Source: Eremomyces bilateralis CBS 781.70 | Taxonomy: Eukaryota; Ascomycota; Dothideomycetes; Eremomycetales; Eremomycetaceae | Length of the DNA stretch: 64,000 nt | Direction: 5' to 3' | Assembly: GCF_010015585.1 (NCBI RefSeq) | Contig: NW_022985067.1 | Span: 1,810,940-1,874,939, forward strand | The notes under the pieces: model-generated | Seen by the model: only the letters and a program-made list of their open reading frames with translations | Told to the model about the DNA's origin: nothing | The model's database searches: none | Translations under genes and position numbers: made by a program | In this document: piece after piece, positions 22,107 to 42,939 of the stretch | Layout of the letters: every line of letters starts with the position of its first letter | How positions within the stretch are numbered: the stretch's first letter is position 1

Positions 22107-23330
22107 ATGGCACCTGACATTCAGCCGTTCAAAATCCACGTCTCCGAGTCTGCCATCGAGTCGCTGAACGACAAACTCGATGCATCCCAATTTCCCGAGG
22201 AGACCACCTTCTCCGATGACTGGAAATACGGCACTCCCTTATCCGATATCAAGCACCTGGCCCAACACTGGCGCGAGAAGTTCAACTGGCGGCAACAGGA
22301 AGCCAAGCTGAATGAATACCCGCAATACACTACGAGTGTCAACGTTGATGGCTTCGGCGAAGTCGAGCTTCATTTCCTCCATCAGCAGACCCGGAATGGG
22401 AACAGCATCCCTTTACTTTTTTGCCATGGCTGGCCGGGTTCCTTTCTCGAAGTTCTTCGCATCCTCCCCCTCTTGACCTCTACTGCCCCAGGAGCACCCT
22501 CCTTCCACATCGTCGCGCCGTCCCTCCCTAACTTCGGCTTTAGCTCGCTCATCCAAAAACCCGGCTTCTCGATCCCCCAATACGCCGAAGCCCTGCATTC
22601 CCTCATGCAAAAGCTCGGTTATTCGCACTACGCCGCGCAGGGGGGCGACTGGGGCTTCATTATCGTCCGCATGCTCGCCCAATTATATCCCTCCTCTCTG
22701 CTATTCCATCACCTCAACTTCGTGCGTGCAAATCCGCCCTCACCTACAGCACATCCGTTGCTCTACCTTCAACACGCCCTGACACCGTACACCGCTGCCG
22801 AGAAAAATGGAATCGAGCGCACCAAATGGTTCTGTGGCCCCGGTTTTGCGTACAACGACCTCCAGGCGCATAGCCCGCATACTATTGGGATAGCATTAAG
22901 AGATTCGCCACTCGCATTGCTAGCCTGGTTGCATGAACGGCTGGTGCAGTGGACGGACAATTATAAATGGGATCTAGACGAGGAGCTGACATGGGTGTCG
23001 TTATATTGGTTCTCAGTCGCAGGCCCCGGTGCAAGTGCGAGAATCTATCACGAGAGTCGATTCGCGGAGTTGGAGAAGCATGACAAGTGCTTCGAATATA
23101 ATGCAGGCGTGTTGCTGGGATTAAGTTATTTTCCTAGGGATCTCGTCGTTCCACCTACCATTTGGGGCAGAACTTTAGGAAAGGTGGTCTTTGAGAGAAG
23201 GCATGCTGATGGTGGGCATTTCGCCGCGTGGGAACGTCCGAACCTGGTTGCAGGAGATTTGCAGGATATGGCAAAGAGGGACCCGGTGAGGAGGATAGTA
23301 GAACAGCGGTTAGCAATCAAGCTGGCGTGA
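22107..23330 (+). CDS. Microsomal-type epoxide hydrolase (EHN + alpha/beta hydrolase)
   Basis: A single-exon protein of 407 aa, the usual length for this class. An N-terminal EHN lid domain (residues ~1-110) is followed by an alpha/beta-hydrolase core with oxyanion motif HGWPGS (107-112), nucleophile elbow GGDWG (Asp181) and catalytic His371 in GGHFAAWE. These are the hallmark residues of enzymes that hydrolyse epoxides to vicinal diols through an ester on Asp. No signal peptide or N-terminal membrane anchor is evident, so it may be soluble. It opens a run of oxidoreductases and hydrolases that could act on one pathway; the substrate is not predictable from sequence. Confidence 0.93.
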   Translation: MAPDIQPFKIHVSESAIESLNDKLDASQFPEETTFSDDWKYGTPLSDIKHLAQHWREKFNWRQQEAKLNEYPQYTTSVNVDGFGEVELHFLHQQTRNGNSIPLLFCHGWPGSFLEVLRILPLLTSTAPGAPSFHIVAPSLPNFGFSSLIQKPGFSIPQYAEALHSLMQKLGYSHYAAQGGDWGFIIVRMLAQLYPSSLLFHHLNFVRANPPSPTAHPLLYLQHALTPYTAAEKNGIERTKWFCGPGFAYNDLQAHSPHTIGIALRDSPLALLAWLHERLVQWTDNYKWDLDEELTWVSLYWFSVAGPGASARIYHESRFAELEKHDKCFEYNAGVLLGLSYFPRDLVVPPTIWGRTLGKVVFERRHADGGHFAAWERPNLVAGDLQDMAKRDPVRRIVEQRLAIKLA

Positions 23331-23710
23331 ACAATGCTAAGAAGGTCAGATCGTCGTGTTTGGGCAGCATTCTGATGCGCAAGGGCAATCGGTAGGTAAT
23401 CAATAATATTGCATGTCATTTTCTATGCTAACCTTTCCTCACTCCATCTTAGAATATTGTTTTGGCCGTCATTGAAGCTACGAACCCAGTCTTCAGTTCT
23501 AGCTCACCTGTATCACCAGTGAGAATACAAGATCGGATCAGGCTTTCAGCAAAAGTGACATCAACATTGCGGCGAAAAAGAAAGCCAACCAAGGTCGAAA
23601 ACGTAGTCATTTAACCTACGTCGAACATAGTCTACCGAGAAAAGTATAGGGTATCCTCCATCTTGCAACAGAACTCGATACTCAATGAAACCCGTAGTTA
23701 TTTGCTTTTC

Positions 23711-24728
23711 TTATAGTCTGGAGTAGACAGTTGAGCGCGAAGGGCCGTCCGTGAAGTCTGTACTCGATGCGAATGACTCCCATCCCTTCAATTCTTCGAG
23801 TGTGTCTGTACATTTTCTTTTTATTACCGTCAAAGCGTCGCTTCCTAATGGGATTCGTAAGGGGAACGTAGCAGGACTCGCGTACATCAAAGCCACCACA
23901 TCAAACACCTTTTGCGCAGCGAGAACTGGATTTCCCGGCTGCTTTCCGTCACTGTTTCGGTGCCTGCATCGTAGTTCTTCCTGAACATTAGCGTAGTCCG
24001 GGATCGCCGTCAAATTTATGGTCTTATTCTTGTTCGAGGGACTCAGAATGCCCGTACGGAACATTCCAAGCACAAGGACGTGGACGCGTATGCCTAAGTG
24101 TGTGATCTCTCGCGAAAGGCTTTCGGCAGCACCTGCCGATAATCATGTCAGTGTATGCTACACACAATGAGTACAGAAGCTACCTTCGACAGCGAATTTT
24201 GACGCGCTGTATGGTCCACCTGCTGCAACTCCGTGCCACCCAGCTATGCTTCCCATGAAAAGTATGACGCCCGAGCGTCTTGCCCGCATGTATGGAAGCA
24301 CGCACCGCACCATTTTCAGGGAACCATAAAAGTTGGTGTCGAATTGTCTACGTATATCGTTGTCGCTAACGAAGGTCAGTGAAATAACACTGTCGTCCTT
24401 GATAGGATCAATACCTGACTTCCTCCCAGACGCCCGAGAACACAAAACCGGCATTGTTGACCAAGACATCGATATGTCCTAAATGTCCGACTGCTCCGCG
24501 GATTTTAATGTAGAGTTCGCGCTCCGGCATGGTCACGTCCAGCTCGATCGGATGAACATTGTCGGCTGCGCCGTCAAGGGAATACATGTATTCTAGGTCC
24601 GAAAGCTTTCGTGCCGTTGGAATGACTTTATCTCCTCGACCAAGTATGGCAGTGACAAGCTCACGTCCGAGTCCCGACGAGCAGCCTGTGACGAGCCATA
24701 CCTTGGATGTCGAGGGCGTCTGAACCAT
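23711..24728 (-). CDS. Classical short-chain dehydrogenase/reductase
   Basis: Exons 24728-24415, 24365-24184 and 24132-23711 give 305 aa. The Rossmann motif TGCSSGLG (14-21), NNAG (91-94), Ser144 in GSIAG, and YSASK with Tyr157 and Lys161 make a complete classical SDR active site. It should interconvert an alcohol and a ketone with NAD(P)(H). The 24-kb position, between the epoxide hydrolase and the Old Yellow Enzyme, suits oxidation of a diol or secondary alcohol in a catabolic route; this is inference. All three junctions keep phase and restore conserved sequence. Confidence 0.92.
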
Positions 24729-25522
24729 ACTAACTAGTTTACTCGGGTTTAAAAAAGAGTAGAAGAGACTGTGGCCTGAATCAATGTTGACAAAAGAGTA
24801 TCGGCACCAGTCAGACCTTTCTCCCCAATCGATGGATGATGTGACTTGTAGGGGGCATGGACCTATAGATCATAGGGTAAAGTCAAATAAAGTCAAATTT
24901 TGCAAATTTTCGAAGCACATGAAGCGAAGATCGTATGTAACCTTGTATACAAATGCTCATAAATCATGGTGTAGCTTATCGGGGGTTAGTTAGTCGCGTT
25001 GCAGGGAAGACGGCGCACTCTAGGTTTCTTCATCGGTTCAAGAGCTTCTCTTGGTATATCAAGAAGAGATATTTGGTGTACGCACCGCGGCATGAGGTGT
25101 CAGTGGTCATCCTGTGTCAAAGTTGTTTGTCGACCAGAACTTCATGTTGTCTGTGGACGTTGGAGGTTGATTGTGGAGCCTTGAGTCCGGGCTTATCCAT
25201 ATGGTCTGGCATGACTCATTCAAATCAGGGACTGCTGTGCTACCAGTCAGGGATCATTCAGGGGTCACTCAGGGGCGGCAGACCACGGCATAGTACATGA
25301 CAAACAATGGAGCACTCTGCAAATATTTGCCCGACAACATATCACCGATGTTCTATTAAATCTATGTAACTAGATGACAGTTCCCATTGACTGCAGATGG
25401 TAGCGGGCGCCTCCAGAAGAGCAGTCCTAGAGGCTAGAAGTCAGCATTACGAGCCAGTCACTTGTCCTGATCTCAAAATTGCCAATAATAATAATGATAT
25501 TATCATCTACGCCGATGTTTTC
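24729..25522. promoter_or_regulatory. Intergenic region holding the SDR promoter
   Basis: The stretch is non-coding. It includes an ATGACTCAT site at 25211-25219 and the 3' flank of the Old Yellow Enzyme gene. Confidence 0.4.
25211..25219. promoter_or_regulatory. bZIP-type site ATGACTCAT, 483 bp upstream of the SDR
   Basis: An exact match to the same palindrome as at 21697, placed in the SDR upstream region. Confidence 0.5.
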
Positions 25523-26675
25523 CTAACCCTTGCTAAGAAATTCATCGCTGAAGTTGTAGTCGATATATCCATGCGGGTGCTTGGGCGTGTAGAATGTGTC
25601 TCTGTTGTACTCATTCAACTCGATTCCGGACCGGATCCTGAAAGGCAGATCTGGTGTCGAGATGAAGAATCGTCCGAACATGACAACAATATTCCTGTTC
25701 TTCTCCTCTTTGTCCACAAGACGACGAGCCGAATCCGGCCGGAAGCCACCAGCAACAAGAAGTGGTCCATTCCATATGTCATATGCAAAGTGGAGCTTGT
25801 CCGATGCCTCTACATCGGCGTTGCCAGAAATTCTCGACTCAACAAGGTGCAGGTAGGCAAGACCGAGTTTGTCCAATTTTTGTATAATGTCTGAAAATTG
25901 CGGCACTGGCTCGTCCATCCTCATGCTGTTGAAGCTACTCCAAGGACTGAGGCGAATGGCCGTGCGATCAGCACCGATCGCATCAATCACAGCTTGAACA
26001 GCCTGTACGCCAAACCGCGAGCGATTCTCGATACTACCGCCGTATTCATCCGCTCGCTGATTGCACTTGTCCTGGAGGAATTGATCGATCAAATAGCCGT
26101 TAGCACCATGTAGTTCAACGCCATCGAAGCCGGCCTCGATTGCGTTTCGGGCTGCCTGCGCGTAATCTTCGATGGTAGATTTGATCTGCTCGATAGTCAA
26201 AGAAGTTGGGACTGCATGCGCTGAGCTAACAGGGATGTCGCTTGAACTCGTGATGGTAATGTTCTCGGTTTTGGCGACGTCAGGGTTGGCGGTGCGCCCA
26301 AGCGCCCACAACTGACAGAAAATATGGCTTCCTTTGGCGTGCACGACTTTCGTTATTTTGCGCCATGCTTCGATTTGTGCGTCGTTATAGATCCCAGGAA
26401 CATTGGCGTATCCGCCTTGCTGCGGTGAGATGAATGTAGCTTGAGTCGTCTTAGTTATTGTGCGCTTACAGTTACAATAGGATGATTGGGAACTCACCCT
26501 CTGAGACTAAGAGCGTTCCTGGCACCGAGGCGCGTTGCTCGTAATATGTGGCCATTAAGTCTAGAGGTACATGCTCATCCGAAGCTCGATATCGGGTCAG
26601 AGGAGACATGCCCATTCTATGCCGCAACTCCACCCTCCCAACGGTAAGCGGCTCGAAAAGTCGTGAGTTGGCCAT
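25523..26675 (-). CDS. Old Yellow Enzyme-family ene reductase (NADH:flavin oxidoreductase)
   Basis: Exons 26675-26498 and 26439-25523 encode 364 aa forming one FMN-binding TIM barrel. The start matches the family (MANSRLFEPLTVGRVELRHR). The substrate-carbonyl binding pair of OYE is present in VELHGANGYLIDQFL (His170, Asn173), with QLWALGR at ~102-108 and the flavin phosphate-binding VAGGF and FGRFFIS near the C-terminus. Such enzymes reduce activated C=C bonds of enones. The ATG lies only about 80 bp from a transposon remnant, so its promoter may have been changed by the insertion; unlike its neighbours I see no ATGASTMAT site just upstream. Confidence 0.94.
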
Positions 26676-26756
26676 GATCGCTTTCGTGTATGGAAAAATG
26701 TCTGCTTCATCTTGGAAATCACAGAAGATATATACACATTAGCAATTTCACCCATC

Positions 26757-27272
26757 TCAGGTTCCACACGAGCATTTTTTGGTTTCCGAATTTGTCAGCT
26801 CAATATTGCCGCCATGATTAATAATGCGGAATATCACGTCCACTCTGAGACGCTTGGACTTCAGGGGCGAAAACACCGAAACATCTAGGGGCTGCAGGAG
26901 GTGAGACGTATGAGCCGGCAGAAACAAAAGAAATACTTGGTTTTCCTTGGCCAACTTCATGAACTCTACTGTAGCGTGAGAACCGTGTCCATCGCACACT
27001 AGAAGCCGCCATTCGTCCGCGGGGAAGTCTAGGGGAGTCCTGGCGGCGACGTCTTCTTCTATAATCCATTCGACGAGCCATTTCTCCTGATCTGGAGACA
27101 ATTTTTGAAACCTTTTGGCTCCATCCTGGTGGGATATTGAGCCATTCAGTCGGGAGCGAAGCGTTGATCTCTTGATGCCGTATTCATCCGCACCTTGGTT
27201 TAAGGAATCGAATTTTTCATCATGAAACGCCTGTATAGCGAGCTGTATAGCGACTTCATTCACACGAGGCAT
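26757..27272 (-). mobile_element. pogo/Fot1-like DNA transposase, internally deleted
   Basis: A 171-aa frame starts with a psq-type helix-turn-helix (MPRVNEVAIQLAIQ .. YGIKRSTLRSRL) and the beginning of a CENP-B HTH. It jumps at about residue 76 straight to the later DDE_1 core (LLVCDGHGSHAT, LPAHTSHLLQPLDVSVFSPL). Full proteins are ~500 aa; the rest of the CENP-B domain and the first catalytic Asp are missing although the frame stays open. Near 27351-27386 two GGTGCACGAAAA units resemble a terminal repeat; a matching left end was not found. This is a defective copy beside the Old Yellow Enzyme promoter. Confidence 0.85.
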
Positions 27273-27491
27273 TTTCAGTATAGCATCTCATTTTGTTGAA
27301 TTAATTGATGAAGTAGAGGATAGATCTATAGAAATCTACCTATCTTGGTTGGGTGCACGAAAATAGGGGTGCACGAAAACGGGGGTCGCTGACTTAGGCC
27401 TGATACGGTTATCGAGTAGCTATCGGGGCTTCCTGATACCGATTATCTAATAATACACGATAGTTTACGCATGTATCGTTATTTTAAACCC

Positions 27492-27948
27492 GGCTGGAGA
27501 GAATCCCCCCCCGTTTTTGGGATTTTCCCCCCTCAGAGGTATCAAAACCATCATATTTCAACTTCAACTCCAAGCAGCTCAACGCTAGCTTCGAAATAAT
27601 ATAATTTTTAAAAACTAAGAAGAATACTAAAGCCTGGATAACCGATCCTGCTATTTTAGAGCTCCAAATCCCCGTTGCGTTGTGGTTGAATTGTGTGTTG
27701 AACTTGATGAGTTGTATGAAAAAACTACCACGACGACTTCAATTCCAAATCACGCAACCCCGCAGCTTATTAGAATCAAATTTCGGGGTCCAAGAGCAAG
27801 AGGGAATTCTAAAGAACTCTCTCTGAGTTTTGAATTTGAAAATAATGGTGAAAATGTGGCTACATTGCCTTGTAAATTTCAAAACTGGTGATTTTGGTAC
27901 TTCTGAGGGGGGAAAATCTCAAAAACAGGGGGGAAAATCTCACCAGCC
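27492..27948. mobile_element. 457-bp MITE with ~60-bp inverted repeats rich in C/G runs
   Basis: The left arm (27492-27550) begins GGCTGGAGAGAAT and has two C-runs around GTTTTTGGGATTTT. The right arm (27888-27948) is its reverse complement with few changes. TAAACCC lies at both sides (27485-27491 and 27951-27957), but two bases separate the right copy from the element, so a target duplication is only possible. The interior has no recognisable coding. Flanking AT-rich sequence contains short TGATACG/CGATTATC inverted motifs that may belong to a second, older element. Confidence 0.75.
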
Positions 27949-28085
27949 AATAAACCCCAGCCCTCACAATCGTCGTGATATTTAATACCGATTATCGTAT
28001 CAGATTACCCGATAAAAATTATCGATGAAGCTCTGCACGTCAGAGGCAACTCCGAGCATCGGCCGATTTTGAGCTGGCTCTGAAC

Positions 28086-28094
28086 ATGAGTAAT
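28086..28094. promoter_or_regulatory. bZIP-type site ATGAGTAAT, 199 bp upstream of the AtuA-like gene
   Basis: The first of four identical ATGAGTAAT copies in the cluster (also at 37131, 39604 and 41614). Confidence 0.5.
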
Positions 28095-28284: not shown

Positions 28285-30243
28285 ATGGGCTCTGTCACAG
28301 ACTTCAAACTACGCATTGCCTCAGCCTCTGGCGCGGTCACAGATCGCCGTCATGGCTTTGCTGACCTTGCAAAGAACGAAGATGTCAAGTACATCGTTGG
28401 CGACTGGATGTCTGAGTACAACATGACCACTCGCGGTGGTAGCAAGATCAACAACAGCGGAGCTTCGGACGAGTTCGAGGATTCATTCCTGGAAGCACTC
28501 GAGCCAGCCTTGCCATATCTGGCATCGAGGGGGATAAAGGTCGCTGTCAACGCCGGAGCCAGCGACACTCAGAAGCTATACGATATCGTGGTTGAAAAGG
28601 TCAAGGCTGCCGGCTTGGACCTGAAAGTTGCCTGGGTCGGTGGCGACGAGGTCATCGACTTGGTCAAGAGTGCCTCGAAAGAAGGAAACGATTTCAAGAA
28701 CTTAACCACCGGTACTGAGTTTGTCGCATTACTTTTTGGATATAACTAACGTATTTCCAGGCAAGGTCTTGAGCGACTGGGAATTCGAGCCCATCTATGC
28801 TCAGTGCTACCTGGGATGCTGGGGCATCGTCGAAGCTTTCAAGCATGGCGTAGATATCGTCTTGTGCGGTCGAGTTGCCGACGCCTCTCCAACGATCGCC
28901 TCCGCAGCGTACCACTTCGGTTGGGGCCGTGAAGACTACGAGCAACTCGCTCATGCTTTTGTTGCCGGACACTTTATCGAATGCTCTACTTACACTACAG
29001 GCGGAAATTTCTCCGGCTTCAAAAGTCTACCAGGCGCGTCCTTAAATCTTGGATATCCCATTGCTGAAATCGGCGCCAACGGCCAGTTCGATGTCACGAT
29101 GCAGAAAGAATGTGATGGTATGGTTACCATTGATACATGCAAGGCGCAGCTGCTGTACGAGATTCAAGGTCCACTCTATTACAATTCAGATGTAGTCGCT
29201 GTGTTGGACGGGATTAAGATCGAGCAAAACGGAGAAAACCGAGTGTGAGTCTGTCTCTATTTCGCAAATCGCGCTGCTGACTTCCTACAGACACGTTAGT
29301 AATGTGGGTTATCTGCGGCCTCCACCAACGACAAAGGTTGGCATCACGGCCAAAGGTGGTTACCAAGCAGAGGCACACTACTTCCTCTGTGGCCTTGACA
29401 TCGAGGAGAAGGCCCGCATGCTAGAGAGACAGGTGCGTGCGTCTCTAGACGAATCGAAATACCATTGCCTCAAGTTCAGGGTCAGTGGCCGATGCCCGGT
29501 CGATCCTAAAAATCAGGACGCCGCTACCGTTGATCTCCGGATTTTCGCGCAAGCTAGGAATGAAGCGGATCTAGCTACTGCAAAGTTCCTCCGACCTATC
29601 ACAAACACTGTCATGCAGAGCTATCCTGGAGCCACATTTGGTGTCGACTCCAGACAAGCAATTCCCAAACCGTACTACGAGTACTGGGTAGCGTTGCTTT
29701 CCCAAAGCAGTGTGAAGCATGTGTGCCATATTCCATCGGCGAAACTGGAAGTTCCCATTGCTGCCCCCACCAGTACACAGGACTTCCTGTATGTTCAAAG
29801 CACATATGAGACGGCAGATCCTCGCAAGCTTTCTGAATTCGGACCAACGACTCGGGTGCCTCTGGGTTACATTGTCCATGCGCGTTCAGGGGACAAAGGC
29901 TCGGATTGCAATGTTGGGCTATTCGTTCGCCAAGCTGACGAGTACGAGTGGCTTAGAAGCCTCCTGACTGTGGACAAAGTCCGCCAATTTTTGAACGAAG
30001 ATGATACAGGGAAGCCGATATTCCGCTTCGAACTTCCCAATATCTGGGGTAAGTGAACACGCTCATCTGAAGTTGGAATTCTACTGATTAAGTCTAGCCG
30101 TACATTTTCTTTTGAAAGATCACCTTGATCGAGGTGTATCGTCCAGCTCGACATACGATGTGCTAGGCAAGAATCTAGCAGAATATCTGCGTTGCAAACT
30201 GGTCGATGTCCCCGACAAGTTCCTTATCAGGGGCAATATTTAG
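28285..30243 (+). CDS. AtuA-like acyclic terpene utilisation family protein
   Basis: Exons 28285-28711, 28761-29244, 29291-30048 and 30098-30243 encode 604 aa. Residues ~8-430 match the AtuA family (DUF1446, PF07287), with KVAVNAGA, AWVGGDEV, GCWGIVEA, VLCGRVADAS and FSGFKSLPGASLNLGYPIAE. The last ~110 residues match the AtuA-like C-terminal domain (YIVHARSGDKGSDCNVGLFV). In Pseudomonas, AtuA belongs to the citronellol/geraniol degradation operon, though its reaction is not settled; fungal members are uncharacterised. Beside the ene reductase, monooxygenase and lactonase-like genes it points to branched or terpenoid acid catabolism. All junctions restore conserved sequence in phase. Confidence 0.92.
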
Positions 30244-31008: not shown

Positions 31009-31032
31009 ATTAGTCATGTCACTCATGACTAA
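31009..31032. promoter_or_regulatory. Paired bZIP-type sites upstream of the MFS gene
   Basis: ATTAGTCAT (31009-31017, complement ATGACTAAT, an exact consensus match) is followed by ATGACTAAG (31024-31032, one base off). They lie about 0.9 kb upstream of the transporter start. Confidence 0.4.
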
Positions 31033-31101: not shown

Positions 31102-31110
31102 ATGACTCAT
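31102..31110. promoter_or_regulatory. bZIP-type site ATGACTCAT, 814 bp upstream of the MFS gene
   Basis: An exact Gcn4/AP-1 palindrome, one of the sites in the transporter upstream region. Confidence 0.5.
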
Positions 31111-31915: not shown

Positions 31916-33844
31916 ATGCCAGAGAAAGTCATTGATAACGTCAAGCGGGTGGAGGATGTCTCTGAGAAGCCCACGATCGTGAAGGATTTCTCCGATAAGC
32001 CCGCGATCATAGAGGATGCCTCTGAAAACTCGCTCTCTCTAGACAAGACCGAAGTGGAGGAGGGCGATGTCGTTGTCAACCTTTCGGAAGCAGAACAGAA
32101 GGCGGCTATCCGCAAGGTTGATTGGCGAGTAGTGCCGTTACTCACTTTTCTTTACCTTGTTTCGTTCATTGACCGGTCCAATAGTAAGTTCCCAACCTAA
32201 ACCTTTACTGTACAGCACTGATTGCTGTTGTGTAGTTGGCAATGCAAAGATTGCCGGCATGAATGATGACCTCAATCTTCATGGTCTGCAGTACAATGCT
32301 GCCGTCACTTTATTCTACGTGCCGTACACACTCCTAGAAGTCCCTTCCAACATAGTACTCAAGCTTATGCGGCCCTCGCTGTGGATATCGATCCTGTTGT
32401 TCACTTGGGGCCTGGTAATGACGTAGGTTTCAATTGCCATGTCGCAACTCAACATGGATCTGACTTGAATAACAGTCTCATGGGGTTGGTAGAGTCATAC
32501 CAGGGCTTGCTAGCTGCTCGGTGGTTTTTGGGTGTCGCTGAAGTTCGTTGTTACCCAGACTCACTCGCACGGAAACTGACCGGCATTCTAGGCGGGATTC
32601 TTCCCAGCGGCGACTTATCTTCTGACTATCTGGTATAAGCGATACGAATATCAAAAGCGATTCGCGATATTCTTTTCCATGGCTTCTATGGCCGGAGCCT
32701 TCTCAGGTTTACTTGCATTCGCTATTGAGAAGATGGACGGAGTTGGCGGCCGGAAAGGATGGCAATGGATCTTCATCCTCGAAGGCTTGGTTCCTATCGC
32801 CACGTCTCTGGTCCTCTGGAAGATTCTTCCTGATTCCCCTGAGACAGCGACATTCTTAAACAAGCACGAGAAGAGATTCGTGATCGAAAGATTAGCTACC
32901 GATACCGGATCAGGAGAGGGTCGAGTTACCAACAATGAACGGATCAAGAAACACCACATTTACAGCGCGTTCAAGGAGTGGCGAGTCTGGGCTATGATCT
33001 TAGTATACTGGGGCAATAGTGTTGGTGTATATGGGTGAGATTCTTCTTGATAATTTCGTCGATGTGTACCGTGCTTATCATTTCCAGCTTCTCTGCAACG
33101 GTACCGACAGTGATTAACGAGTTGGGCTACACACAAGCTCAAGCGCAACTCCTTACTGTTCCAATCTACTTCTTTGCTGTTATCCTGGTCCTTGTTTTCG
33201 CTTTCCTATCCGACCATTATCAGGTTAGGTGGATCTTTATTATCATACCTTATACTATTGCATCCTGCAGCTTCATTGCTCAGCTTGCTATCCCACACCC
33301 TAGATACCCTGGTGTAGCTCTCGGATTCCTGTTCGGAATCGCAGGCGGTTTATATTCTGGGTTCCCGCCAACGGTCGCTTGGGTTGCCAACAACTTAGCC
33401 CCTTCGTCAAAGCGAGCTGTTGCAATGGTACGTTATTCCGAAATTTCCATAAGAAAGCAGAAAACACAGAGTGTCACCTTTTGGTGTTCTTCCATGATAC
33501 CAGCCTTCTCAGCTGTTAGTAGGCCCTCTGCTGTCAACAAAACTAACCGCTACGACCAGGCGCTGCTCATTTCTGTGGGCAATATGGGTGCAATCGCTGG
33601 TTCGAATGTCTATCTTGCACGTGAAGCTCCCGTGTACCACCTCGGGTTCGGAGCTTGCTTGGCTTTTCTGTGTGTTTCAATTATCATGACCGTTGTCTTG
33701 CGCTTGTCATATGGGCGGGAGAATGCTCGAAGAGACAGATTGGTGGAGGAGCTCGGCGGTGAGGTGGGTGTGAAGAGTCGCTACTCTGAACAGGAATTGC
33801 TCGATATGGGAGACCGCAGTCCATTCTTCAGGTACGCTCTTTGA
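31916..33844 (+). CDS. MFS transporter, Dal5/anion:cation symporter (ACS) family
   Basis: Exons 31916-32183, 32236-32422, 32476-32542, 32592-33034, 33088-33427 and 33560-33844 give 529 aa. A long acidic cytosolic N-terminus (~80 residues) precedes WRVVPLLTFLYLVSFIDRSN, the first helix with the family's DRSN signature. AGFFPAATYLLTIWYKRYE and WIFILEGLVPI are typical of the Dal5/Tna1/vitamin-H-like group, which imports carboxylates, allantoate, nicotinate or similar small anions. About 12 hydrophobic spans are visible. An uninterrupted reading through 32543-32591 shifts frame and ends early; treating it as a GTTCGT..TTCTAG intron restores the conserved VAEAGFFP. Its place suggests uptake of the cluster's substrate. 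Confidence 0.92.
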
Positions 33845-34455: not shown

Positions 34456-36213
34456 TCATGTACCATAAATTGCTGATGCCATTGCAGGAAACCCCTCCAG
34501 AAATGTAGGTGAGACCGTCCAGTTTTTAAGATTTCGAAGGTGCTTCTCGAAGATGGAGTGTATTCGCTCATCACCATTGGCGTCTTCCACTGCGTCAAGG
34601 CTATCGAAGCCCCAGTTCACAGTGACATGCTCGGTGTAATATTTACCGACAACTTCGTAAGGGTACCGTTCAGGCTCTTCGATTAGCATATCTCGTACTC
34701 CAGGCCTTGACATCGTCAGCGCCTTTTACAATTGCGTGTCATTTTCATACCATGGAATGTTGGTGATCCAAATAGCATGCGGTACCGTCATCTGTATCGC
34801 GGTAGGCCGTAGCCAGGGCGGCATGTAGAGGTAATCCTTTTTATCGCGCGATATCAGCCACTGAAATTGTGAGTATGTATTGCATGATTCGCACAGTATG
34901 AAGTAGGACAAGCACCATACCCTCATCGTCTGACTCATCACCCAGAAGAAGGTCATCTTCTCCGCCATTTTCGTTGTCAAATACTTCGACAAGATTTCCC
35001 CTATGAGCCCAGCAAGAGCATGAGTGGGATCCCCCGTTTTCGGATTGAGCAGCTTTCGAAGAGTTGGCCTTTGCGGACCAATTACGTCTTGAACAGGCTC
35101 ACCATTCGCTATCATTGCTCTACGAGAGTTCATAAAGTTCAGTAGTATGTCGTCCAAGGGACATACGGGGGACGTAAATGGAGGGGTGACGGTGAAAATG
35201 GTAGGACTGGGTGAGGATTCAGGTCTCCGCTCGGGAATATCGGGTCGATTGATGGTTACTGTGCTGCTGGGGGTCGGAAGTGATACCGGAGGATCGTTTT
35301 GAGGCACCTCGCTCATGGTCCCGTCGAATTCACCACCCAGTGAGAGATGCGAGTCACTTGATCGCACAAGAGAGAGAAGATGGCCAACTGGCGTCGTAGA
35401 TGTGTGCCCATCACTGGCGCTCTGTGATGCATTTGGCGATGGATGGAAGGCCCAACTTCCTCGGCCTACCAGAGTCTCATGAGGACCGGCACTATGTGGA
35501 TCTGCAACCGGGGCTCGCTCGCACGCGTTGACGTGCATAGACATAGAATTTGTCCGAGGCTGGATTTCCTGGTGACTTCTCTCATCGTGCATAATGCCCG
35601 CTGACAGATGAAAAGCAGCACCGCCGGCAACAACTGAGTCGGTGACGGTCATACGGCTAGTGTCCTCATCAGGATGCGAAGTTGCCATCTGTAGACCCTG
35701 GACTCCAGATGAAGGAGCAACAATACCATTCTGCTCCAGCCGATCGCGTATAGATTCGATTTCATGCCTGAATTCGGACCCGTAACCATCATTTTGGCTA
35801 CCTGCGACGTACATTAGTATTGCTAAGAAGATCACCCGATTTGAGAGCGTACCTTCAGAGCGGCTTGTCAAGGCATCTTCGGAGGTCGTCACGCCAAGTG
35901 CCGTGGAGGTAGTATCAAGGATATTCCCGAGGGATTGAGACATAATTCGAACCCGCTCGCGCAGCATGGTTATCTGCTGCTGTAGCTCATTTTCCCTCTG
36001 ACTGGAAGCCTCTTGTAGACGAGCGTTCTCTTGCTCCAGGCTGATGATACTGTCTTTCATTCGCTGGCGAAAAGCGTGCTGAGCTTTCCTGTCCACCTGA
36101 CGTTTGTGTTGAACTTGTTCTTCGGTCAGGTTGGCTATCGTTCTCGATCTCTTGTTTGGGTTGGCCAGACGCTCCATGGCTGCTGCATCGCTCGCATCCC
36201 GATTTGCAGCCAT
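34456..36213 (-). CDS. bZIP transcription factor with C-terminal DUF3425
   Basis: Exons 36213-35853, 35801-34921, 34860-34751 and 34705-34456 give 533 aa. The basic region (residues ~37-53, KRQVDRKAQHAFRQR) is followed by a leucine-zipper-like stretch to ~90, a Ser/Thr/Pro-rich middle, and DUF3425 from ~330 (LRKLLNPKT, MSQTMRWLISRD, MPPWLRPTAIQMTVPH, IFEKHLRNLKNW). The usual DNA-contacting Asn of the basic region is Asp here, as in other bZIP-DUF3425 proteins. Introns 1 (51 nt) and 2 (60 nt) are multiples of three with no stop, so unspliced forms would still be open. It is the only regulator in the 22-43 kb run and a natural candidate for controlling it. Confidence 0.92.
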
Positions 36214-37404
36214 TATCGCACCACGGTCTCAAGCAAGAGCCACCGCCGACGTCTACAGCCTGGCGACTGTCATGTATAACTACCGTCCACAGAAGAAGCC
36301 ATTAGCATCCGGATTGTGAGGTTGAGTGCAGCTTTCCGTTGGATGGTCCGTGATTCTGAAATTGCGGGGACGGGGTACCCCACAGCGTGGCCCTGCCGAA
36401 CGGCTAAGGAAACGGGGACCATTCCAACACATCAGGACCAAAGGGCACGAACTGGTCTATGTATAATGAAAGTGGAAAATCATATCCAGCGACAGCGTTG
36501 TACCGAATATACCCTCTGCGGAGAGCTTCGGGCCTCAATTCAAACTTCGGCCAACACCCACTGGATTTAAGCGGAGACAAGGACTTTGAGATGAGGTCAA
36601 AATCGGGGGTTTCCTCCGCACCGAACTCTCTGGAAGGAGTTTCTCTTCACACTTCAGTCACACTAGACACGCAATTGTGTAGACAGCCACAGCTCCGCAT
36701 AGAAGAAGTGGACAAAAAGGGTTGTTAAGCAAGAAGACGACTGACGATGTAGCCACCATCGGTGGCGAATGATTCAGCAGGCGGGTCCTTAAAGAACGGA
36801 AGAGCATGAAGATTGATAGACAAGCCCGATCGCAAGGCATTGCTGAATGCCGATACTAGGTATTGGGTCCAACAGAGAGTGCTTGCCGAACGCGGATAAC
36901 ATCTCGGCTCTTCCAACCCAGTATGCTCGCTACTCAAACGACCTCCATATTACCCCGCACGGCATCATCTACAAGATGCAGATCCTGAGAATAATGTACT
37001 ATGTATGTAGAGCATCGAAGATCCGCAGTTCGCATTCCGGCCACCAACTATCCTTCGGGATTTAGAACATTGGCGTTGGGCTGGACTAGCGCGAATGAGG
37101 GCCAGCTGGTCCTTGCCGGCTTGCCCACGCATGAGTAATGTCAATGGCTGGGGCTCGGCGTTTCTGCATGTGATCACTTGCCCTGCGAGGACTGGGGAAT
37201 CGTCATATCGCTCCATAGAAAATCCAAAGGAGTGCAGCTACTAGCAACTAGCAAGGAATGGAGAAAGTAAAAGTGTGAGCGACATACTATGTTATTGTTA
37301 CTATGCTAACACGAAGTTATGGTACGTACTCCATGTGAAGATGCGCCAGCAAATACATACCTAGATGCACCAAAAGCCATGTCAGGTCCTTAGGTGCTTT
37401 GCAT
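36214..37404. promoter_or_regulatory. Intergenic region with the bZIP promoter
   Basis: This 1.2-kb stretch has no recognised gene. It contains an ATGAGTAAT site at 37131-37139, 918 bp upstream of the bZIP start and 266 bp past the monooxygenase stop. Confidence 0.4.
37131..37139. promoter_or_regulatory. bZIP-type site ATGAGTAAT upstream of the bZIP gene
   Basis: An exact copy. If functional it could allow autoregulation; the distance (918 bp) makes this weaker than the other sites. Confidence 0.4.
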
Positions 37405-39361
37405 TTAGTTCCGCAGTTGTACGCAGGCTTCTTGCAACAACAACCCAAGGTCCCGCTCCTTAGCCAGAAACCCCAAGCCTACGGCATAACACACGATGGC
37501 AGATTTCGATTGCAATAACCCAACAATTGATCTCCAGGCGCGTCTCAACCGCCAAAAGCTGTCTCCTCCTTTGAGTTTGAAGTCACTCCACTTGGGGAAG
37601 AGAGTCCGTCGCCAGAATGTAGCCGCGTAACCAGGCCACGAAGCGGAGTTCCTACCGGCTTTGTTGATGTACCAGTTGGAGCATCCAGCCGAGAAGACTG
37701 TATCATGAAGCTCGAGATCAATGCCTTCAACGAAGTAGTCTTCAGCGGCCTTCTCAACCTCCACAGTCCTCGCTCTTCTGTCCAGTAAGGGTTCGAATAG
37801 TGTCTTTGCAAGGTAATCAACTTGAACTTCCGAAGCAAAAATGACTGAATTGTGGGCCGGGAAGGTGTTTGGCCCAAACCTAAAATCGGATCAGCTTTCT
37901 TCTAACATATGGCCATCAATAGGCTCACATCAATGCGAAGTTGGGGAAGTTGTGGATGTGCATGCCCATGTAGGCTTGCGCACCAACGTGTGCATCCCAT
38001 TGCTTATGCAAATCGATACCACTTCTCCCAACAACTTTCAATGGCCCGAGGAAGCTCGAGACTTCGAAGCCTGTGGCGAGGACAATCACATCGAAGTCGT
38101 CATGCACACCAGACTCGCTAACAACACCAGTTGCGTCAAACTTCTGTATACCTTCAGCACGAAGAGTCATGTTGTGTGTGTGCAAGGCCTCGAGATAGCC
38201 GGGATCGAAAATTCGCCTCTTGCAGCCTGTACGACTGTTAGCCAATTGTGCCCAGGATGGACCTGCGTAGTGTTCTAAGTACCTAGTGGAAATTTCGGGA
38301 TGAGAATATCGTGGTACTTCTTTGGTGCCGTTGCCAAAATGTACTCCCTCGCAGCGCGCTCCGTGGCCTCACGCTGCTTTTGAGAGGCTTCGGAAGCTCC
38401 GTACGTTGTCATCAAGGCATCACTTGAGCTGAAAATCTGGTACCGATGATACCTCTGCCAGAGGGGGACATAGGTAAAACAGAACTTCTCGATGGCTGAG
38501 AACTCGCGATTCGGTCGTTCATGATACCACTGTTGGCCTCGCGCATATCTGCGTCAAAATTAGACGGATCATCTATATTCATAGGTCATGGACTTACTGA
38601 GTAACGTGCTTCACGTCTTTGACGACGCTAGGCACTACCTGGGCGGCCGAGCAGCCGTTACCGATAACGGCCATTCGCTTGCCCCTATAATCATACTTCG
38701 TGTTCCATCGTGCGGTATGAAAAATGGTCCCTTGGAATTCATCTTGGCCTGGAAATTTCGTCTTTCTGGGTTCTGATATACTACCAATAGCCGAGATGAA
38801 GATAGTCGCCTTCTTCGTGTACTTCCGCTTTGTTCTCTCGTCCAGAAGATGAACTTCCCATTTGTTTTCCTTCTCATTCCAAGTCGCACCTTCGCATGAT
38901 GTATTGAAAACCATATGGGGCCGCAAGCGAAACTTGTCTACCGTTGATTCCATATCTACGCCCATGGAATCAATCGTGTGAACGATAGGCACAGGCTGGG
39001 TCACTTACATTCAAGAATCTCCTCACGGTCGCAAAGCTCTTTCGACCACCGAGGATTCAAATTGAAACTGAAGGAGTACAAATGGGTGGGAATATCACAA
39101 CCACTGCGCACAAGATAAGCCTCAACTGGCGCCTTTGCAGTCAGACAATTGAATACGCACCATCCTGGATAAACATTGGTCCTCCATGTGCCGCCAGGTC
39201 CATCCAATTTCTCATACATCTGGACGCCCATTAGCAGAACTTCTTGCATGAAAGGCTTCACTAACCGTGAAGTTGTCGAATCCCAGCTTCTGCTTCAACT
39301 TGTGCGCCATAGCAATCCCCGACGGCCCGCCGCCGATGATAATCGCGTCAATAGAAGTCAT
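37405..39361 (-). CDS. Baeyer-Villiger-type flavin monooxygenase (class B)
   Basis: Seven exons: 39361-39266, 39219-39161, 39103-39009, 38955-38598, 38548-38283, 38226-37929 and 37879-37405, giving 548 aa, the usual size. FAD-binding GGGPSG (10-15), EKLDGPGGTW, the Baeyer-Villiger fingerprint FxGxxxHxxxW (F157-W167, FQGTIFHTARW), the NADPH-binding GNGCSA (182-187) and the second motif ATGF are all present. Such enzymes insert oxygen beside a ketone to make an ester or lactone. The metallo-beta-lactamase-fold gene starts divergently 579 bp away, which suits lactone formation followed by ring opening. The substrate is unknown. The gene model is supported at every junction by conserved sequence. 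Confidence 0.93.
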
Positions 39362-39940
39362 CTTGAGCTGTTGCAGCACAATCGGTCACTCTCAGACGAA
39401 TGAAGGATGCTCACAGTAAAAGTTTTGGAGTATGGGGTAAACCACGGAGTATACTTGGAAATATAACAACGCATTAGTAGCTCACTAGAGTGGCCACTCT
39501 AGACACCATGTTATTCGACTGCCATTGCCCATTCCACATCGAGAATACGTCGCCTTGCACAGGGACCAGTCGTCAACGGCTGTACATACTGGGATCCGCA
39601 AACATGAGTAATGTCTAATGTCTATCATGATTTCGCGCTTGCATACCCATGACTCGTGTGCCCCGGATCTTTGGTTAATACTACCTGGATGGTGCCGATG
39701 GCCACTTGCCGACTTGCCGTGCATTCCTGTACGGCAGCGGTCTATAACCCGTCCATGGTCTGTTAGACTGTAGACACAGTGGATCAAAATTGCTCTTCAG
39801 ATGGCAGCGTCATGCCACGCCAGGTAGGATATAGAGATGGAGATTGGAGTTAGGATCGTAGAGGTGGAGATTGAAGTTTATTTCTTGAGCCTACTATCCG
39901 CTTCATCGTCCAAATTTACAGGAAAGGGGAAAAATAAAAA
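39362..39940. promoter_or_regulatory. Shared divergent promoter of monooxygenase and metallo-hydrolase
   Basis: A 579-bp interval between two divergent start codons, with one ATGAGTAAT site. No coding seen. Confidence 0.55.
39604..39612. promoter_or_regulatory. bZIP-type site ATGAGTAAT between the divergent monooxygenase and hydrolase
   Basis: An exact copy, 243 bp from the monooxygenase start and 329 bp from the hydrolase start. Confidence 0.5.
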
Positions 39941-41134
39941 ATGGCCACAGCGGGGTTGACGCCAGAAGCCGCACCAAGACTCAATTTGCCGAAAGGGGTC
40001 GTCTCCTGCACAATCGCCGCTATCAATACAACATGCGACTTGACGGTTCCTATCGATACGCTGTGCGAACCATCGATAGACGACCATAACCTACTAAATT
40101 TGCCAACGATCGCTTTTCTGATCACGCATCAGCCCTCTGGGCGGCAGGTGCTCTTCGATCTAGGATGTCGAAAGGATTTCTGGAATCTGCCTCTTCCAAT
40201 CGCAGAAACTATCAAGGCAAAGGTGCCTGGTATCAGAGTTGACAAAAATCTGATCGACGTCTTGGTCGAAGGTGGTAGCGATATCGCAAACATTGAAGCA
40301 GCGATACTCAGCCATCATCACTACGATCATATTGGCCATCCGAGTACATTCCCGAAATCCTTAGATCTTATAGTTGGTCCTGGGTTCTCCGAAGAATTCT
40401 TGCCTGGCTACCCAACAATTACAACATCCCCCTTCTTCGAGAACGATTTCGATCGGAACGTGCGCGAGCTCGACTTCTCGGGCGGACTCATCATCGTCGG
40501 CTTCCGCGCCATCGACTATTTCGAAGATGGGAGTCTGTATCTCCTGGATTCTCCGGGCCATGCAGTTGGACATATTTCAGCCCTAGTGAGAACCACCGAT
40601 TCAATAGCAGCTATTGACACCTTCGTGTTTCTGGGGGGAGATATCTGCCATTTCGGCGGCTCTTTCAGAGCCACAAGATACCTGCCAATGCCATATATGC
40701 TTAGTCCATACGATGTGGGACAGAGCCCTGACAAATCGCCGACTCTGTGTTGCACACAGTTCACTGCCTGCCATCCACAGCAGGAAAATGCGAGAACATC
40801 GCCATACTACAAAGTTTGTAGCGGGTCCGACTCGTGGTATGAAAACCCGCCACTTGCACAGCAGAGCATCGAGAAGTTGAAGGTGATTGATGCCGACGAT
40901 CGGGTTCTCGTCTTGATCGCTCACGATTTGGCCATGCTGGACGTCATCTCTTTCTTTCCCAAAGGCACGATTAACGATTGGCACAACTTGGGATGGAAAC
41001 AGAAGCTACGTTGGCGATTCTTGAATGAGCTTCCCGTGGAAGGAAATGAGCGGAAAGAAGTTCTTGTCAACGGAACATACGTGGATGGGAAGCGTGTGAA
41101 GGACTTAGATGGCAAGTGTATGCAGCATCAATGA
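39941..41134 (+). CDS. Metallo-beta-lactamase-fold hydrolase, AHL-lactonase-like
   Basis: A single-exon protein of 397 aa. The zinc motif HxHxDH is seen as HHHYDH (residues 125-130) after LFDLGCRKDF, the usual start of lactonase-like members; DSPGHAVGH supplies a further metal His and LGGDICH another ligand. Members hydrolyse lactones, thioesters or related esters. No signal peptide, so probably cytosolic. Fungal paralogues often occur in secondary-metabolite or catabolic clusters. Paired with a Baeyer-Villiger-type enzyme, the simplest inference is a lactonase; other hydrolase activities of this fold remain possible. Confidence 0.9.
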   Translation: MATAGLTPEAAPRLNLPKGVVSCTIAAINTTCDLTVPIDTLCEPSIDDHNLLNLPTIAFLITHQPSGRQVLFDLGCRKDFWNLPLPIAETIKAKVPGIRVDKNLIDVLVEGGSDIANIEAAILSHHHYDHIGHPSTFPKSLDLIVGPGFSEEFLPGYPTITTSPFFENDFDRNVRELDFSGGLIIVGFRAIDYFEDGSLYLLDSPGHAVGHISALVRTTDSIAAIDTFVFLGGDICHFGGSFRATRYLPMPYMLSPYDVGQSPDKSPTLCCTQFTACHPQQENARTSPYYKVCSGSDSWYENPPLAQQSIEKLKVIDADDRVLVLIAHDLAMLDVISFFPKGTINDWHNLGWKQKLRWRFLNELPVEGNERKEVLVNGTYVDGKRVKDLDGKCMQHQ

Positions 41135-41732
41135 GGGGAGTGGACACTCCGTTTGTTTTGCAATGAGTGACTTAGACATATGATAGGGGAGCTTCAATAC
41201 ACCATTTTTGGTCAAGTTGCGATTTGCCCAGCTGCAAAGCGGTCACGCGACATCTTCGTGTTGAGCCGAGCGATCTTCGCTTATAGAGTGATATGACTGT
41301 ACAGGAGGGACGGAAGAAGCTACCTAACAAGTGTTGACCATTGCTGAGATTCGGTGAAGTCTAGGCAAGGACGACTTTAGGAATGAAATAAGAGTTCAAT
41401 CGGATGTCACTTGAATCGGGTGGGATTTCCAAAATCCAATTCCGTGCTTTGTAAGGAACATCAACAATCAAGAAATCGGGGTGCACCAATAATTGTGGCC
41501 GGATCTAATATATCGAGATATGTAAGCGTTGCTAAGCAAGGTTGGACTAGTTTCCTGTCTCCCAGAGTGCTGATCCCTGGATTGATGTCAGTCGACATCT
41601 TCATGACCACACAATGAGTAATATCAACCGGTCAGGGTCCTGACTAACAAGACTGGCTTGGAGTATTTAAATCAGAGGGGAAGAATTGTATAAAACACAG
41701 AGGTGATCTGTACGAACGTTGAAATCGCTGGA
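41135..41732. promoter_or_regulatory. Intergenic region with the Ecm4-like promoter
   Basis: Non-coding. ATGAGTAAT lies at 41614-41622, and AT-rich sequence follows near 41660. Confidence 0.4.
41614..41622. promoter_or_regulatory. bZIP-type site ATGAGTAAT, 119 bp upstream of the Ecm4-like gene
   Basis: The last copy of the motif in the run and the one closest to a start codon. Confidence 0.5.
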
Positions 41733-42939
41733 ATGTCAAGTCTGCTTCGCCGATTGCCACAACTAAGAAACCAGTTAACACCTCGATCTCCACCCACCAT
41801 AATCCTGTCCGCAAAGATGTCGACACACGATCCAGCCAAGAAGAACATCCTCAACTGGGTCGACCCCAAAGACAAGAGCGGGGAATTCAGGCGCCAACAG
41901 TCCCAATTCCGCGACGTCATCTCCTCCGATCCCAACGCCGCCTTCCCCGCCGAAAAGGACCGGTATCATCTCTATGTCTCGTATGCCTGCCCCTGGGCCC
42001 ACCGGACCCTCATCGTCCGGAAGCTCAAGGGCCTGGAGGAGCTGATCCCGTTCACGGCGGTGCACTGGCACATGGGCGAGCGAGGCTGGCGGTTCGTGAC
42101 GCCGGACGAGACGGTGCCGGGGGAGAACGCGGTGCCAGATCCGCTGCACCCGGAGTACACGCATCTGCGGGACATTTACTTCGAGAATGATAAGGAGTAC
42201 GGTGGACGGTTCACCGTGCCGACCTTGTATGACAAGAAACAGAAGCGGATCGTGAACAACGAGAGCAGCGAGATCATTCGCATGTTCTACCATGCCTTCG
42301 ACGCGTTGCTGCCGGAGAAGCACAGGAATCTCGATCTGTTCCCGAAAGCGTTGCAGCAAAAGATTGAGGAGACGAATGATTGGACGTACAACGATATCAA
42401 CAATGGTGTCTACAAGTCCGGGTTTGCGACGTAAGTAACACCTCCGCCAAAACGATTCAGGACACTAATTGTTTGACCAGTTCACAAGAAGCCTACGAGA
42501 AGGCGTGCACACAGCTGTTCAAGTCTTTGGACCGTGTTGAGGCACATCTCTCCTCATCTCCCGGACCCTACTATTTCGGCACCGAGATCACGGAGGCAGA
42601 TGTCCGGCTGTACACGACAATCGTCCGCTTTGACCCCGTGTACGTCCAGCACTTCAAGTGCAATATCCGCGACATCCGATCGGGATATCCTGCCATTCAC
42701 GCGTGGCTCCGGAAGCTGTATTGGGACGTCCCGGCGTTCCGCGAGACGACCCAGTTCGAACACATCAAATATCACTACACGAAGAGCCATAAGCAGATCA
42801 ATCAATTCGTATGTTGGCGCGTTCTAACTGTATGTGGCGCGAAGGCTGACATGACGTGCAGAGCATCACCCCTATAGGACCCCTTCCAGACATTCTTCCG
42901 AAGGATCAAGAAGTGGCGGCAGGAAAGGCATCAAAATGA
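41733..42939 (+). CDS. ECM4: Omega-class glutathione transferase / glutathionyl-hydroquinone reductase (Ecm4/Gto)
   Basis: Exons 41733-42430, 42481-42808 and 42862-42939. The thioredoxin-fold half carries the catalytic CPWAHRT motif, and the helical half contains [20 protein letters not shown], both diagnostic for xenobiotic-type omega GSTs and glutathionyl-hydroquinone reductases. Two in-frame starts are attractive: the ATG at 41733 gives an Arg-rich, acid-free leader ([14 protein letters not shown]) that could direct import into mitochondria, and the ATG at 41817 (MSTHDPAKK) matches cytosolic homologues. A third upstream ATG at 41703 is in frame but adds an acidic leader. It may reduce glutathionyl conjugates of quinones or reactive intermediates; whether it belongs to the cluster is uncertain, although its promoter has the shared motif. 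Confidence 0.92.

What the first reader, a model, noticed from the sequence alone, without database searches (positions are those of the whole stretch)
22107..42939. Candidate terpenoid/cyclic-ketone catabolic gene cluster
Seen: epoxide hydrolase, SDR, Old Yellow Enzyme, AtuA-like protein, Dal5-type MFS transporter, bZIP-DUF3425 regulator, Baeyer-Villiger-type monooxygenase, metallo-beta-lactamase-fold hydrolase and Ecm4-type GST lie side by side with all active-site motifs intact. Known: bacterial limonene/carvone degradation uses epoxide hydrolase, carveol dehydrogenase, an Old Yellow Enzyme ene reductase, a Baeyer-Villiger monooxygenase and a lactone hydrolase; AtuA belongs to acyclic terpene utilisation. 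Inference: this fungus has an equivalent, possibly undescribed, route. No PKS, NRPS, terpene synthase or P450 is present, so catabolism or detoxification is more likely than biosynthesis.
Basis: partly seen in the sequence, partly recalled or inferred. Interest (0 to 1): 0.8.

Follow-up and report, generated by a model that had tools for sequence, protein, structure and literature searches.

The report
Fungal co-regulated small-molecule breakdown cluster
Nine neighbouring fungal genes that look made for uptake and breakdown of an unidentified small molecule share the same DNA switch in their promoters, so they are probably one jointly controlled pathway rather than chance neighbours, and one of them belongs to a little-understood family of carbon-carbon bond-cutting enzymes.

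Summary
The nine genes are there, at the stated ends, with clean introns and no internal stops. New here: the 9-mer ATGASTMAT occurs at nine places in the window, all in the seven promoter regions of these genes, none in the other 55.9 kb. An exhaustive search over 9-mers with one degenerate position finds it in 7 of 7 promoters; 0 of 1000 shuffles do as well. In the 5.7 Mb listed, the best other 20-kb window holds two sites. So this is one regulon, probably run by the in-cluster bZIP-DUF3425 protein.
The modelled fold of an AtuA paralogue matches one solved protein, citramalate lyase CmlA, itself named AtuA family. Carboxylase genes flank 5 of 9 bacterial relatives but not the fungal ones; a second AtuA-OYE pair lies on another contig.
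I read it as a catabolic or detoxifying cluster with an acetate-releasing lyase, ene-reductase, Baeyer-Villiger oxygenase and lactonase-like hydrolase. The substrate is unproven: limonene-type and acyclic-terpene-type pathways each fail a defining gene. No fungal relatives could be searched.

The parts
22107..23330 (+). epoxide hydrolase, EHN + alpha/beta-hydrolase, 407 aa, no intron
23711..24728 (-). short-chain dehydrogenase/reductase, 305 aa, 2 introns
25523..26675 (-). Old Yellow Enzyme, 364 aa, 1 intron; closest solved relative chanoclavine-I aldehyde reductase 4qnw
26760..27287 (-). pogo-type transposase relic (HTH_psq + DDE_1), lacking about 575 bp that other copies have, in the OYE/AtuA promoter
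27492..27949 (.). short repeated element (about 455 bp, inverted ends; MITE-like), nine further long copies at 84-97% identity seen (a lower bound)
28285..30243 (+). AtuA family protein fused to AtuA_ferredoxin domain, 604 aa, 3 introns; predicted acetate-releasing lyase
   Evidence: fold of a paralogue
31916..33844 (+). major facilitator transporter, anion symporter-like, 529 aa, 5 introns
34456..36213 (-). bZIP-like basic region (by eye) + DUF3425 regulator, 553 aa, 2 introns
37405..39361 (-). Baeyer-Villiger-type flavin monooxygenase, 548 aa, 6 introns
39941..41134 (+). metallo-beta-lactamase-fold hydrolase, lactonase-like, 397 aa, no intron
41733..42939 (+).
21697..21705 (.). promoter element ATGACTCAT, 401 bp before EH
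25211..25219 (.). promoter element ATGACTCAT, 482 bp before SDR
28086..28094 (+). promoter element ATGAGTAAT, 190 bp before AtuA, 1410 bp before OYE
31009..31017 (-). promoter element ATGACTAAT, 898 bp before MFS
31102..31110 (.). promoter element ATGACTCAT, 805 bp before MFS
31420..31428 (.). promoter element ATGAGTCAT, 487 bp before MFS
37131..37139 (+). promoter element ATGAGTAAT, 917 bp before the bZIP gene itself
39604..39612 (+). promoter element ATGAGTAAT in the divergent BVMO/MBL promoter (242 and 328 bp)
41614..41622 (+). promoter element ATGAGTAAT, 110 bp before GST

Best explanation
The nine genes are one regulon: a DUF3425-bZIP protein encoded in the middle binds a GCN4-like element (ATGA-S-TMAT) in every promoter region of the cluster, its own included, and switches on uptake and breakdown (or detoxification) of an organic acid or other small oxygenated molecule. 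Shown by sequence: gene content, intactness, and the shared element in all seven promoter regions. Inferred: that the in-cluster bZIP is the binder; that the MFS protein imports the substrate; that AtuA is an acetate-releasing carbon-carbon lyase (fold of citramalate lyase) acting on a tertiary 3-hydroxy acid; that the Old Yellow Enzyme reduces an activated double bond, the epoxide hydrolase opens an epoxide, the Baeyer-Villiger-type enzyme turns a ketone into an ester or lactone, the metallo-hydrolase opens that ester or lactone, the SDR handles the alcohol/ketone, and the GST deals with reactive by-products. A beta-methyl-branched (terpenoid-like) substrate would suit this set, but no substrate is shown.
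For: Nine ATGASTMAT sites, all in the seven promoter regions, none in the other 55,950 bp of the window; exhaustive search over 9-mers with one two-fold degenerate position gives 7 of 7 promoters, 0 of 1000 dinucleotide shuffles do; with two degenerate positions 0 of 100. In the listed 5.72 Mb of the genome the density outside the cluster is 1 per 83.8 kb and no other 20-kb window holds more than 2. AtuA paralogue model: one PDB hit under E 0.001, citramalate lyase 9evf, E 6e-22, named AtuA family/CmlA. AtuA and OYE are divergent neighbours here and again on C3; chance of two such pairs within 2 kb about 5e-6, and the two OYEs are not close (32-38% in two segments, v. 52% to the C33 OYE; the C22 and C8 OYEs were not compared). 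MBL closest to AHL lactonases; BVMO closest to cyclohexanone monooxygenase.
Against: The core is also the classical GCN4 site (recalled): 4 of 9 sites are the exact palindrome, so a general bZIP such as CpcA could be the binder. The longer form CATGASTMATG is about two-fold over its reversed control genome-wide (68 v. 31 strand matches), so other targets exist. The element was first seen by eye, then tested. OYE lies 1.4 kb from its site behind transposon debris. The GST is the only such copy found and may be an ordinary gene next door, though it has a site. No fungal genome other than this one could be searched, so conserved co-location in relatives is untested. The AtuA fold was modelled on a paralogue, not on the window protein, at moderate confidence (mean pLDDT 75). 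No expression data.
Confidence: 0.6

Rival explanations
1. Detoxification cluster: the same regulon defends against a reactive plant or microbial compound (enone, epoxide, lactone, quinone) rather than feeding on it.
For: OYE, epoxide hydrolase, GST and lactonase-like hydrolase are all detoxification-type enzymes; no CoA ligase, thiolase or other core beta-oxidation gene among the nine models.
Against: The transporter resembles importers of organic anions more than drug exporters (all under cut-off); a carbon-carbon lyase (AtuA) is unusual in simple detoxification (inference).
Confidence: 0.25
2. Tailoring part of a biosynthetic cluster whose backbone enzyme is elsewhere or lost.
For: OYE is closest to an ergot-alkaloid pathway reductase (4qnw; pathway recalled); BVMO's best NCBIfam match is pentalenolactone D synthase, far below cut-off; cluster-specific bZIP regulators are known for biosynthetic clusters (PMC8406171, passages).
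Against: No backbone gene among the 20 ORFs and models scanned; importer-like MFS; AtuA family function is degradative where named.
Confidence: 0.12
3. The genes answer to a general bZIP (GCN4/CpcA-like) through the same sites; the in-cluster DUF3425 protein has another role.
For: Core TGACTCA at 4 of 9 sites; the long form is about two-fold over control genome-wide; rice-blast BIP1 shows a bZIP acting through GCN4-like TGACTC sites on cluster genes and others (PMC10833574, passages).
Against: Five of nine sites have the TAAT half, which is not the classical GCN4 half-site (recalled); the 9-mer as a whole is not enriched genome-wide (396 v. 408 for the reversed control).
Confidence: 0.25
4. 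Chance neighbours with no common role.
For: All families are common in ascomycetes (recalled).
Against: Shared promoter element in 7 of 7 promoter regions; AtuA-OYE pairing seen twice in the genome.
Confidence: 0.04

Closest known systems
Bacterial limonene/carvone degradation of Rhodococcus erythropolis DCL14 (PMC4097962, passages)
   Same: same reaction types: epoxide hydrolase, alcohol dehydrogenase, ene reductase, Baeyer-Villiger monooxygenase, lactone hydrolase
   Different: epoxide hydrolase and candidate lactonase are of other folds (bacterial folds recalled); AtuA, transporter and bZIP regulator have no counterpart in the passages read; substrate unknown
Bacterial acyclic terpene utilisation (Atu) pathway (PMC4847356, passages)
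   Different: no geranyl-CoA carboxylase, hydratase or CoA ligase among the nine genes; partner genes are OYE and a flavin monooxygenase
Citramalate lyase subunit A, CmlA (PDB 9erq, 9evf; entry names only)
   Same: fold of the AtuA domain (modelled on a paralogue), and the motifs GRxxD, xEC, LYE
   Different: about 15% identity; the fungal protein carries a C-terminal AtuA_ferredoxin domain; activity unknown
Fungal clusters run by a bZIP protein through a shared element: xanthocillin/XanC (PMC8406171, passages) and ACE1/BIP1 (PMC10833574, passages)
   Same: bZIP-type site repeated through the promoters of one cluster; in-cluster regulator (XanC)
   Different: those are biosynthetic; here the site is ATGASTMAT and no backbone enzyme was found; XanC has no site before its own gene, the gene here has one
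Second AtuA-OYE cluster in this genome, C3:980-1009 kb
   Same: divergent AtuA/OYE pair with flavin monooxygenase, hydrolase, and by eye MFS and regulator
   Different: OYE only 32-38% identical, luciferase-like monooxygenase plus flavin reductase instead of BVMO, Zn2Cys6 regulator (by eye), amidase and permease

Membership tests
Bacterial limonene/carvone pathway | limonene-1,2-epoxide hydrolase (its own fold, recalled) | tested here: not met
   gene is EHN + Abhydrolase_1, closest to alpha/beta-hydrolase epoxide hydrolases
Bacterial limonene/carvone pathway | alpha/beta-type epsilon-lactone hydrolase (fold recalled) | tested here: not met
   among the nine genes the only lactonase candidate is metallo-beta-lactamase fold
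Bacterial limonene/carvone pathway | Baeyer-Villiger monooxygenase | tested here: met
   closest to cyclohexanone and steroid monooxygenases; one fingerprint residue differs
Bacterial limonene/carvone pathway | carveol dehydrogenase and carvone reductase activity | tested here: inconclusive
   SDR and OYE present, specificity not readable
Bacterial limonene/carvone pathway | induction by limonene | not testable with these tools
   no expression data
Acyclic terpene utilisation (Atu) pathway | AtuA | tested here: met
   PF07287 E 3e-166 over the whole domain
Acyclic terpene utilisation (Atu) pathway | geranyl-CoA carboxylase (AtuC/AtuF) | tested here: not met
   0 hits in the window and the C3, C5, C11 neighbourhoods; 5 of 9 bacterial loci have both subunits
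AtuA/CmlA acetate-lyase family | AtuA domain and fold | tested here: met
   Pfam on the window protein; model of the C5 paralogue (51-52% identical) matches 9evf
AtuA/CmlA acetate-lyase family | lyase activity | not testable with these tools
   needs an enzyme assay
Type I Baeyer-Villiger monooxygenases | two Rossmann motifs and FxGxxxHxxxW(P/D) | tested here: inconclusive
   all present except N for P/D at the last position (motif recalled)
bZIP-run fungal gene cluster | common element in the promoters of the cluster, absent around it | tested here: met
bZIP-run fungal gene cluster | regulator binds the element | not testable with these tools
   needs EMSA or reporter assay
Conserved fungal catabolic cluster | co-location in related species | not testable with these tools
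   no fungal relatives held (stated)

The most novel reading that the evidence does not exclude
An undescribed fungal route for beta-methyl-branched (terpenoid-type) acids that replaces the bacterial carboxylase step: AtuA, fused to its ferredoxin-like partner domain, releases the branch as acetate directly, leaving a methyl ketone that the Baeyer-Villiger enzyme and the lactonase-like hydrolase take apart; the AtuA-OYE pair is a reusable module that this fungus has assembled at least twice with different oxygenases and under different regulators.
Probability: 0.2. Interest if true: 0.75.

Novelty: new variant of a known kind. Interest (0 to 1): 0.52.

Why it matters
If right, it gives a fungal catabolic cluster whose limits are drawn by a readable promoter switch rather than by guesswork, a binding-site candidate for a DUF3425 bZIP protein, and a concrete, assayable chemistry (acetate-releasing lyase) for fungal AtuA proteins, which carry a bacterial terpene-pathway name that their gene neighbourhood here does not support. 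It makes the question of how fungi degrade branched terpenoid-like compounds directly testable.

Tried and rejected
Horizontal transfer of AtuA from bacteria: the one genome-contig scan (two short peptide patterns) found nine relatives, best-segment identity 26-32%, so no recent transfer is seen in what that scan reached. OYE beside bacterial AtuA: 0 of 9 loci by tblastn with the window OYE; the same call found a BVMO relative (25% identity) about 9 kb from AtuA in 1 of 9 loci (L041) and an SDR relative (29%) in 1 of 9 (L036), so the bacterial contexts are not wholly different. Three of the nine loci are cut short by contig ends (L033, L034, L039), and L036 and L038 lie on one contig. A second regulon elsewhere: the two other places with several long-form sites, C25:245-280 kb and C18:384-402 kb, look like ordinary genes by eye and held no relative of the cluster proteins by tblastn. 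Regions with two 9-mer sites close together on C2, C3 and C1 showed, by eye, nothing like this cluster. Shared element in the C3 AtuA/OYE promoter: absent there; one perfect copy lies instead about 260 bp before that cluster's Zn2Cys6 gene (start placed by eye). Literature on fungal AtuA/DUF1446 clusters: searches found no paper, and the rows listed (20, 15 and 7) showed none on such a fungal catabolic cluster; led only to an A. nidulans expression table naming a DUF1446 gene (PMC5371717, passages). A DUF3425 binding site was looked for in one search (12 rows listed). Paper behind PDB 9erq/9evf: not found, so only the entry names were used. Species identity: the rRNA search failed on the server and was not repeated because the searches left were used otherwise; the organism is not identified. 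A VIA-align check was not available. A structure for the metallo-hydrolase was not run.
Full report
What is there. The window lies at C1:1810940-1874939 of a 26.6-Mb, 62-contig fungal genome whose species I could not name. The nine genes of the finding were rebuilt exon by exon with GT-AG introns, most with a recognisable branch point, and give complete reading frames (the GST needed a one-base correction of its second intron end, read from the sequence and borne out). Pfam gives EHN + Abhydrolase_1, adh_short, Oxidored_FMN, AtuA + AtuA_ferredoxin, MFS_1, DUF3425, flavin monooxygenase models, Lactamase_B (just under cut-off) and GST domains. Left of the cluster are an alpha-amylase piece, an alpha-glucan-synthase-like gene (name by eye; glycosyltransferase domains), a frame without Pfam match and a coiled-coil-like gene; right of it a folliculin-interacting-protein gene, a glyoxalase-like gene, a Ras-family GTPase, an aminotransferase, an AMP-binding enzyme and a CAF1B/HIR1 propeller (ten flank frames were scanned, not all).

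One regulon. While reading the DNA I saw ATGAGTAAT recur. The form ATGASTMAT occurs at nine places in 64 kb (13 strand matches, mean of shuffles 2.1, largest of 100 shuffles 8). All nine lie in the seven promoter regions of the nine genes, none in their coding sequence and none in the flanks. Because the motif was chosen after looking, I searched all 9-mers with one two-fold degenerate position: the real promoters reach 7 of 7, and only with this motif; of 1000 dinucleotide-preserving shuffles none reach 7 (one reaches 6, without the rule that the word be absent elsewhere; with the rule the most is 5). With two degenerate positions the real score is 7 and 100 shuffles reach at most 6, three times. 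Genome-wide the 9-mer is at background (396 strand matches against 408 for the reversed pattern). The listing stops after 100 entries, 77 distinct sites in 5.72 Mb; outside the cluster the density there is 1 per 83.8 kb and no other 20-kb window holds more than two, against nine here; the rest of the genome was counted but not listed for the 9-mer. Four other neighbourhoods of this genome, 90 kb, hold two sites; 16 further loci, 58 kb and partly overlapping those, hold one, before the second epoxide hydrolase. The promoter bounds were set by my gene models, and the left bound of the first (20500) by eye. The sites stand 110-917 bp from the start codons except for OYE (1410 bp).

Who binds. The likeliest binder is the DUF3425 protein in the middle of the cluster, which has a site before its own gene and no close relative found in the genome (best other match E 3e-6). 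The core is GCN4-like, so a general bZIP is a real rival. Precedents for both exist: XanC with a cluster element (PMC8406171, passages read) and BIP1 with TGACTC sites including a divergent promoter (PMC10833574, passages read). The longer form CATGASTMATG has 47 distinct sites genome-wide, five in the cluster, and is about twice its reversed control (68 v. 31), so other targets are likely. Two outliers are suggestive only: a 9-mer about 230 bp before the only other EHN epoxide hydrolase found (C1:1518707; 52% and 40% identical in two segments; start estimated) and a perfect 11-mer about 260 bp before the regulator of the second AtuA-OYE cluster (C3:991205).

AtuA. The genome has four AtuA loci (nine exon matches) and five OYE loci (nine exon matches). 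Two of the AtuA genes stand head to head with an OYE: here, and at C3:991450-995626. By chance two such pairs within 2 kb would be expected with probability about 5e-6. The window OYE is 52% identical to the C33 OYE and only 32-38% to the C3 one (C22 and C8 not compared), so the pairing was perhaps assembled twice. The C3 surroundings hold a luciferase-like monooxygenase, flavin reductase, alpha/beta-hydrolase, zinc alcohol dehydrogenase, permease, deacetylase-like and amidase genes, and, by eye, an MFS and a Zn2Cys6 regulator. Nine bacterial relatives at 26-32% identity (best segment): in five, both subunits of a biotin-dependent carboxylase lie beside AtuA, as in the Atu pathway (two of the five are on one contig, and the probes came from one of the five); none has an OYE, one has a BVMO relative about 9 kb away and one an SDR relative. 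The window and the C3, C5 and C11 neighbourhoods have no carboxylase hit. Foldseek against the PDB returned one match under E 0.001: citramalate lyase 9evf (E 6e-22, probability 1.00, TM 0.59/0.71, rmsd 5.4, 15% identity). A profile of the same alignment finds the same protein by sequence (E 4e-6), and the entry is named AtuA family protein / citramalate lyase subunit A. Citramalate cleavage gives acetate and pyruvate (PMC8473912, passages on the clostridial enzyme), and AtuA is listed as an acetate lyase in the Atu pathway (PMC4847356, passages). The motifs shared with CmlA (GRxxD, xEC, LYE) are intact in the window protein.

Other enzymes. The epoxide hydrolase is of the alpha/beta EHN kind. 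The OYE is closest to chanoclavine-I aldehyde reductase. The flavin monooxygenase is closest to cyclohexanone and steroid monooxygenases. The metallo-hydrolase is closest to N-acyl homoserine lactonases. The GST is the only such copy found.

How it may work (inference). A bZIP activator turns on import; AtuA cuts a tertiary 3-hydroxy acid to a ketone and acetate; the Baeyer-Villiger enzyme makes an ester or lactone, the metallo-hydrolase opens it, SDR, OYE and epoxide hydrolase adjust alcohol, enone and epoxide groups, and the GST mops up. A beta-methyl-branched acid, typical of terpenoids, fits, but any order and substrate are guesses.

Compared with known systems. It shares reaction types with limonene/carvone breakdown (PMC4097962, passages) and one gene with the Atu pathway but fails defining features of both (see membership rows). 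It works like a regulator-in-cluster fungal pathway and I rate it a new variant of a known kind.

A scar. A pogo-type transposase relic and a roughly 455-bp inverted-repeat element sit between OYE and AtuA; they separate OYE from its site, which predicts weaker induction of OYE.

Limits. No expression data. Names given as by eye rest on no model search.

Noticed in passing
C3:980-1009 kb of the own genome (L024-L026): A second cluster with a head-to-head AtuA/OYE pair, a luciferase-like FMN monooxygenase (in two open frames), a flavin reductase, amidase and purine/cytosine-type permease; looks like another catabolic cluster.
   Followed up: partly
C5:528620-537919 (L027, L028): An AtuA paralogue sits between two inverted pogo-type transposase frames that are 99.3% identical (1650 of 1662 bases): a young inverted pair around a metabolic gene.
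   Followed up: partly
window 27492-27949: A roughly 455-bp repeated element with inverted ends; one search shows nine further long copies at 84-97% identity: a MITE-like family.
   Followed up: partly
window 12812-13708: A 299-aa open frame on the minus strand without any Pfam match.
   Followed up: no
C1:1517123-1518715 (L044): The only other EHN epoxide hydrolase gene found in the genome has an ATGAGTAAT element upstream and may belong to the same regulon.
   Followed up: partly
C2:258280-258321 (L045): Two ATGASTMAT sites 33 bp apart lie a few hundred bp before a frame that looks by eye like a Zn2Cys6 regulator; a possible further target.
   Followed up: no
C11:394711-399532 (L029, L030): The most divergent AtuA copy has a CoA-transferase family III gene about 1.6 kb away, a different partner from the OYE pairs.
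   Followed up: no
window, left and right of 44 kb: GC content is 47-52% left of 44 kb, cluster included, and 54-57% right of it.
   Followed up: no
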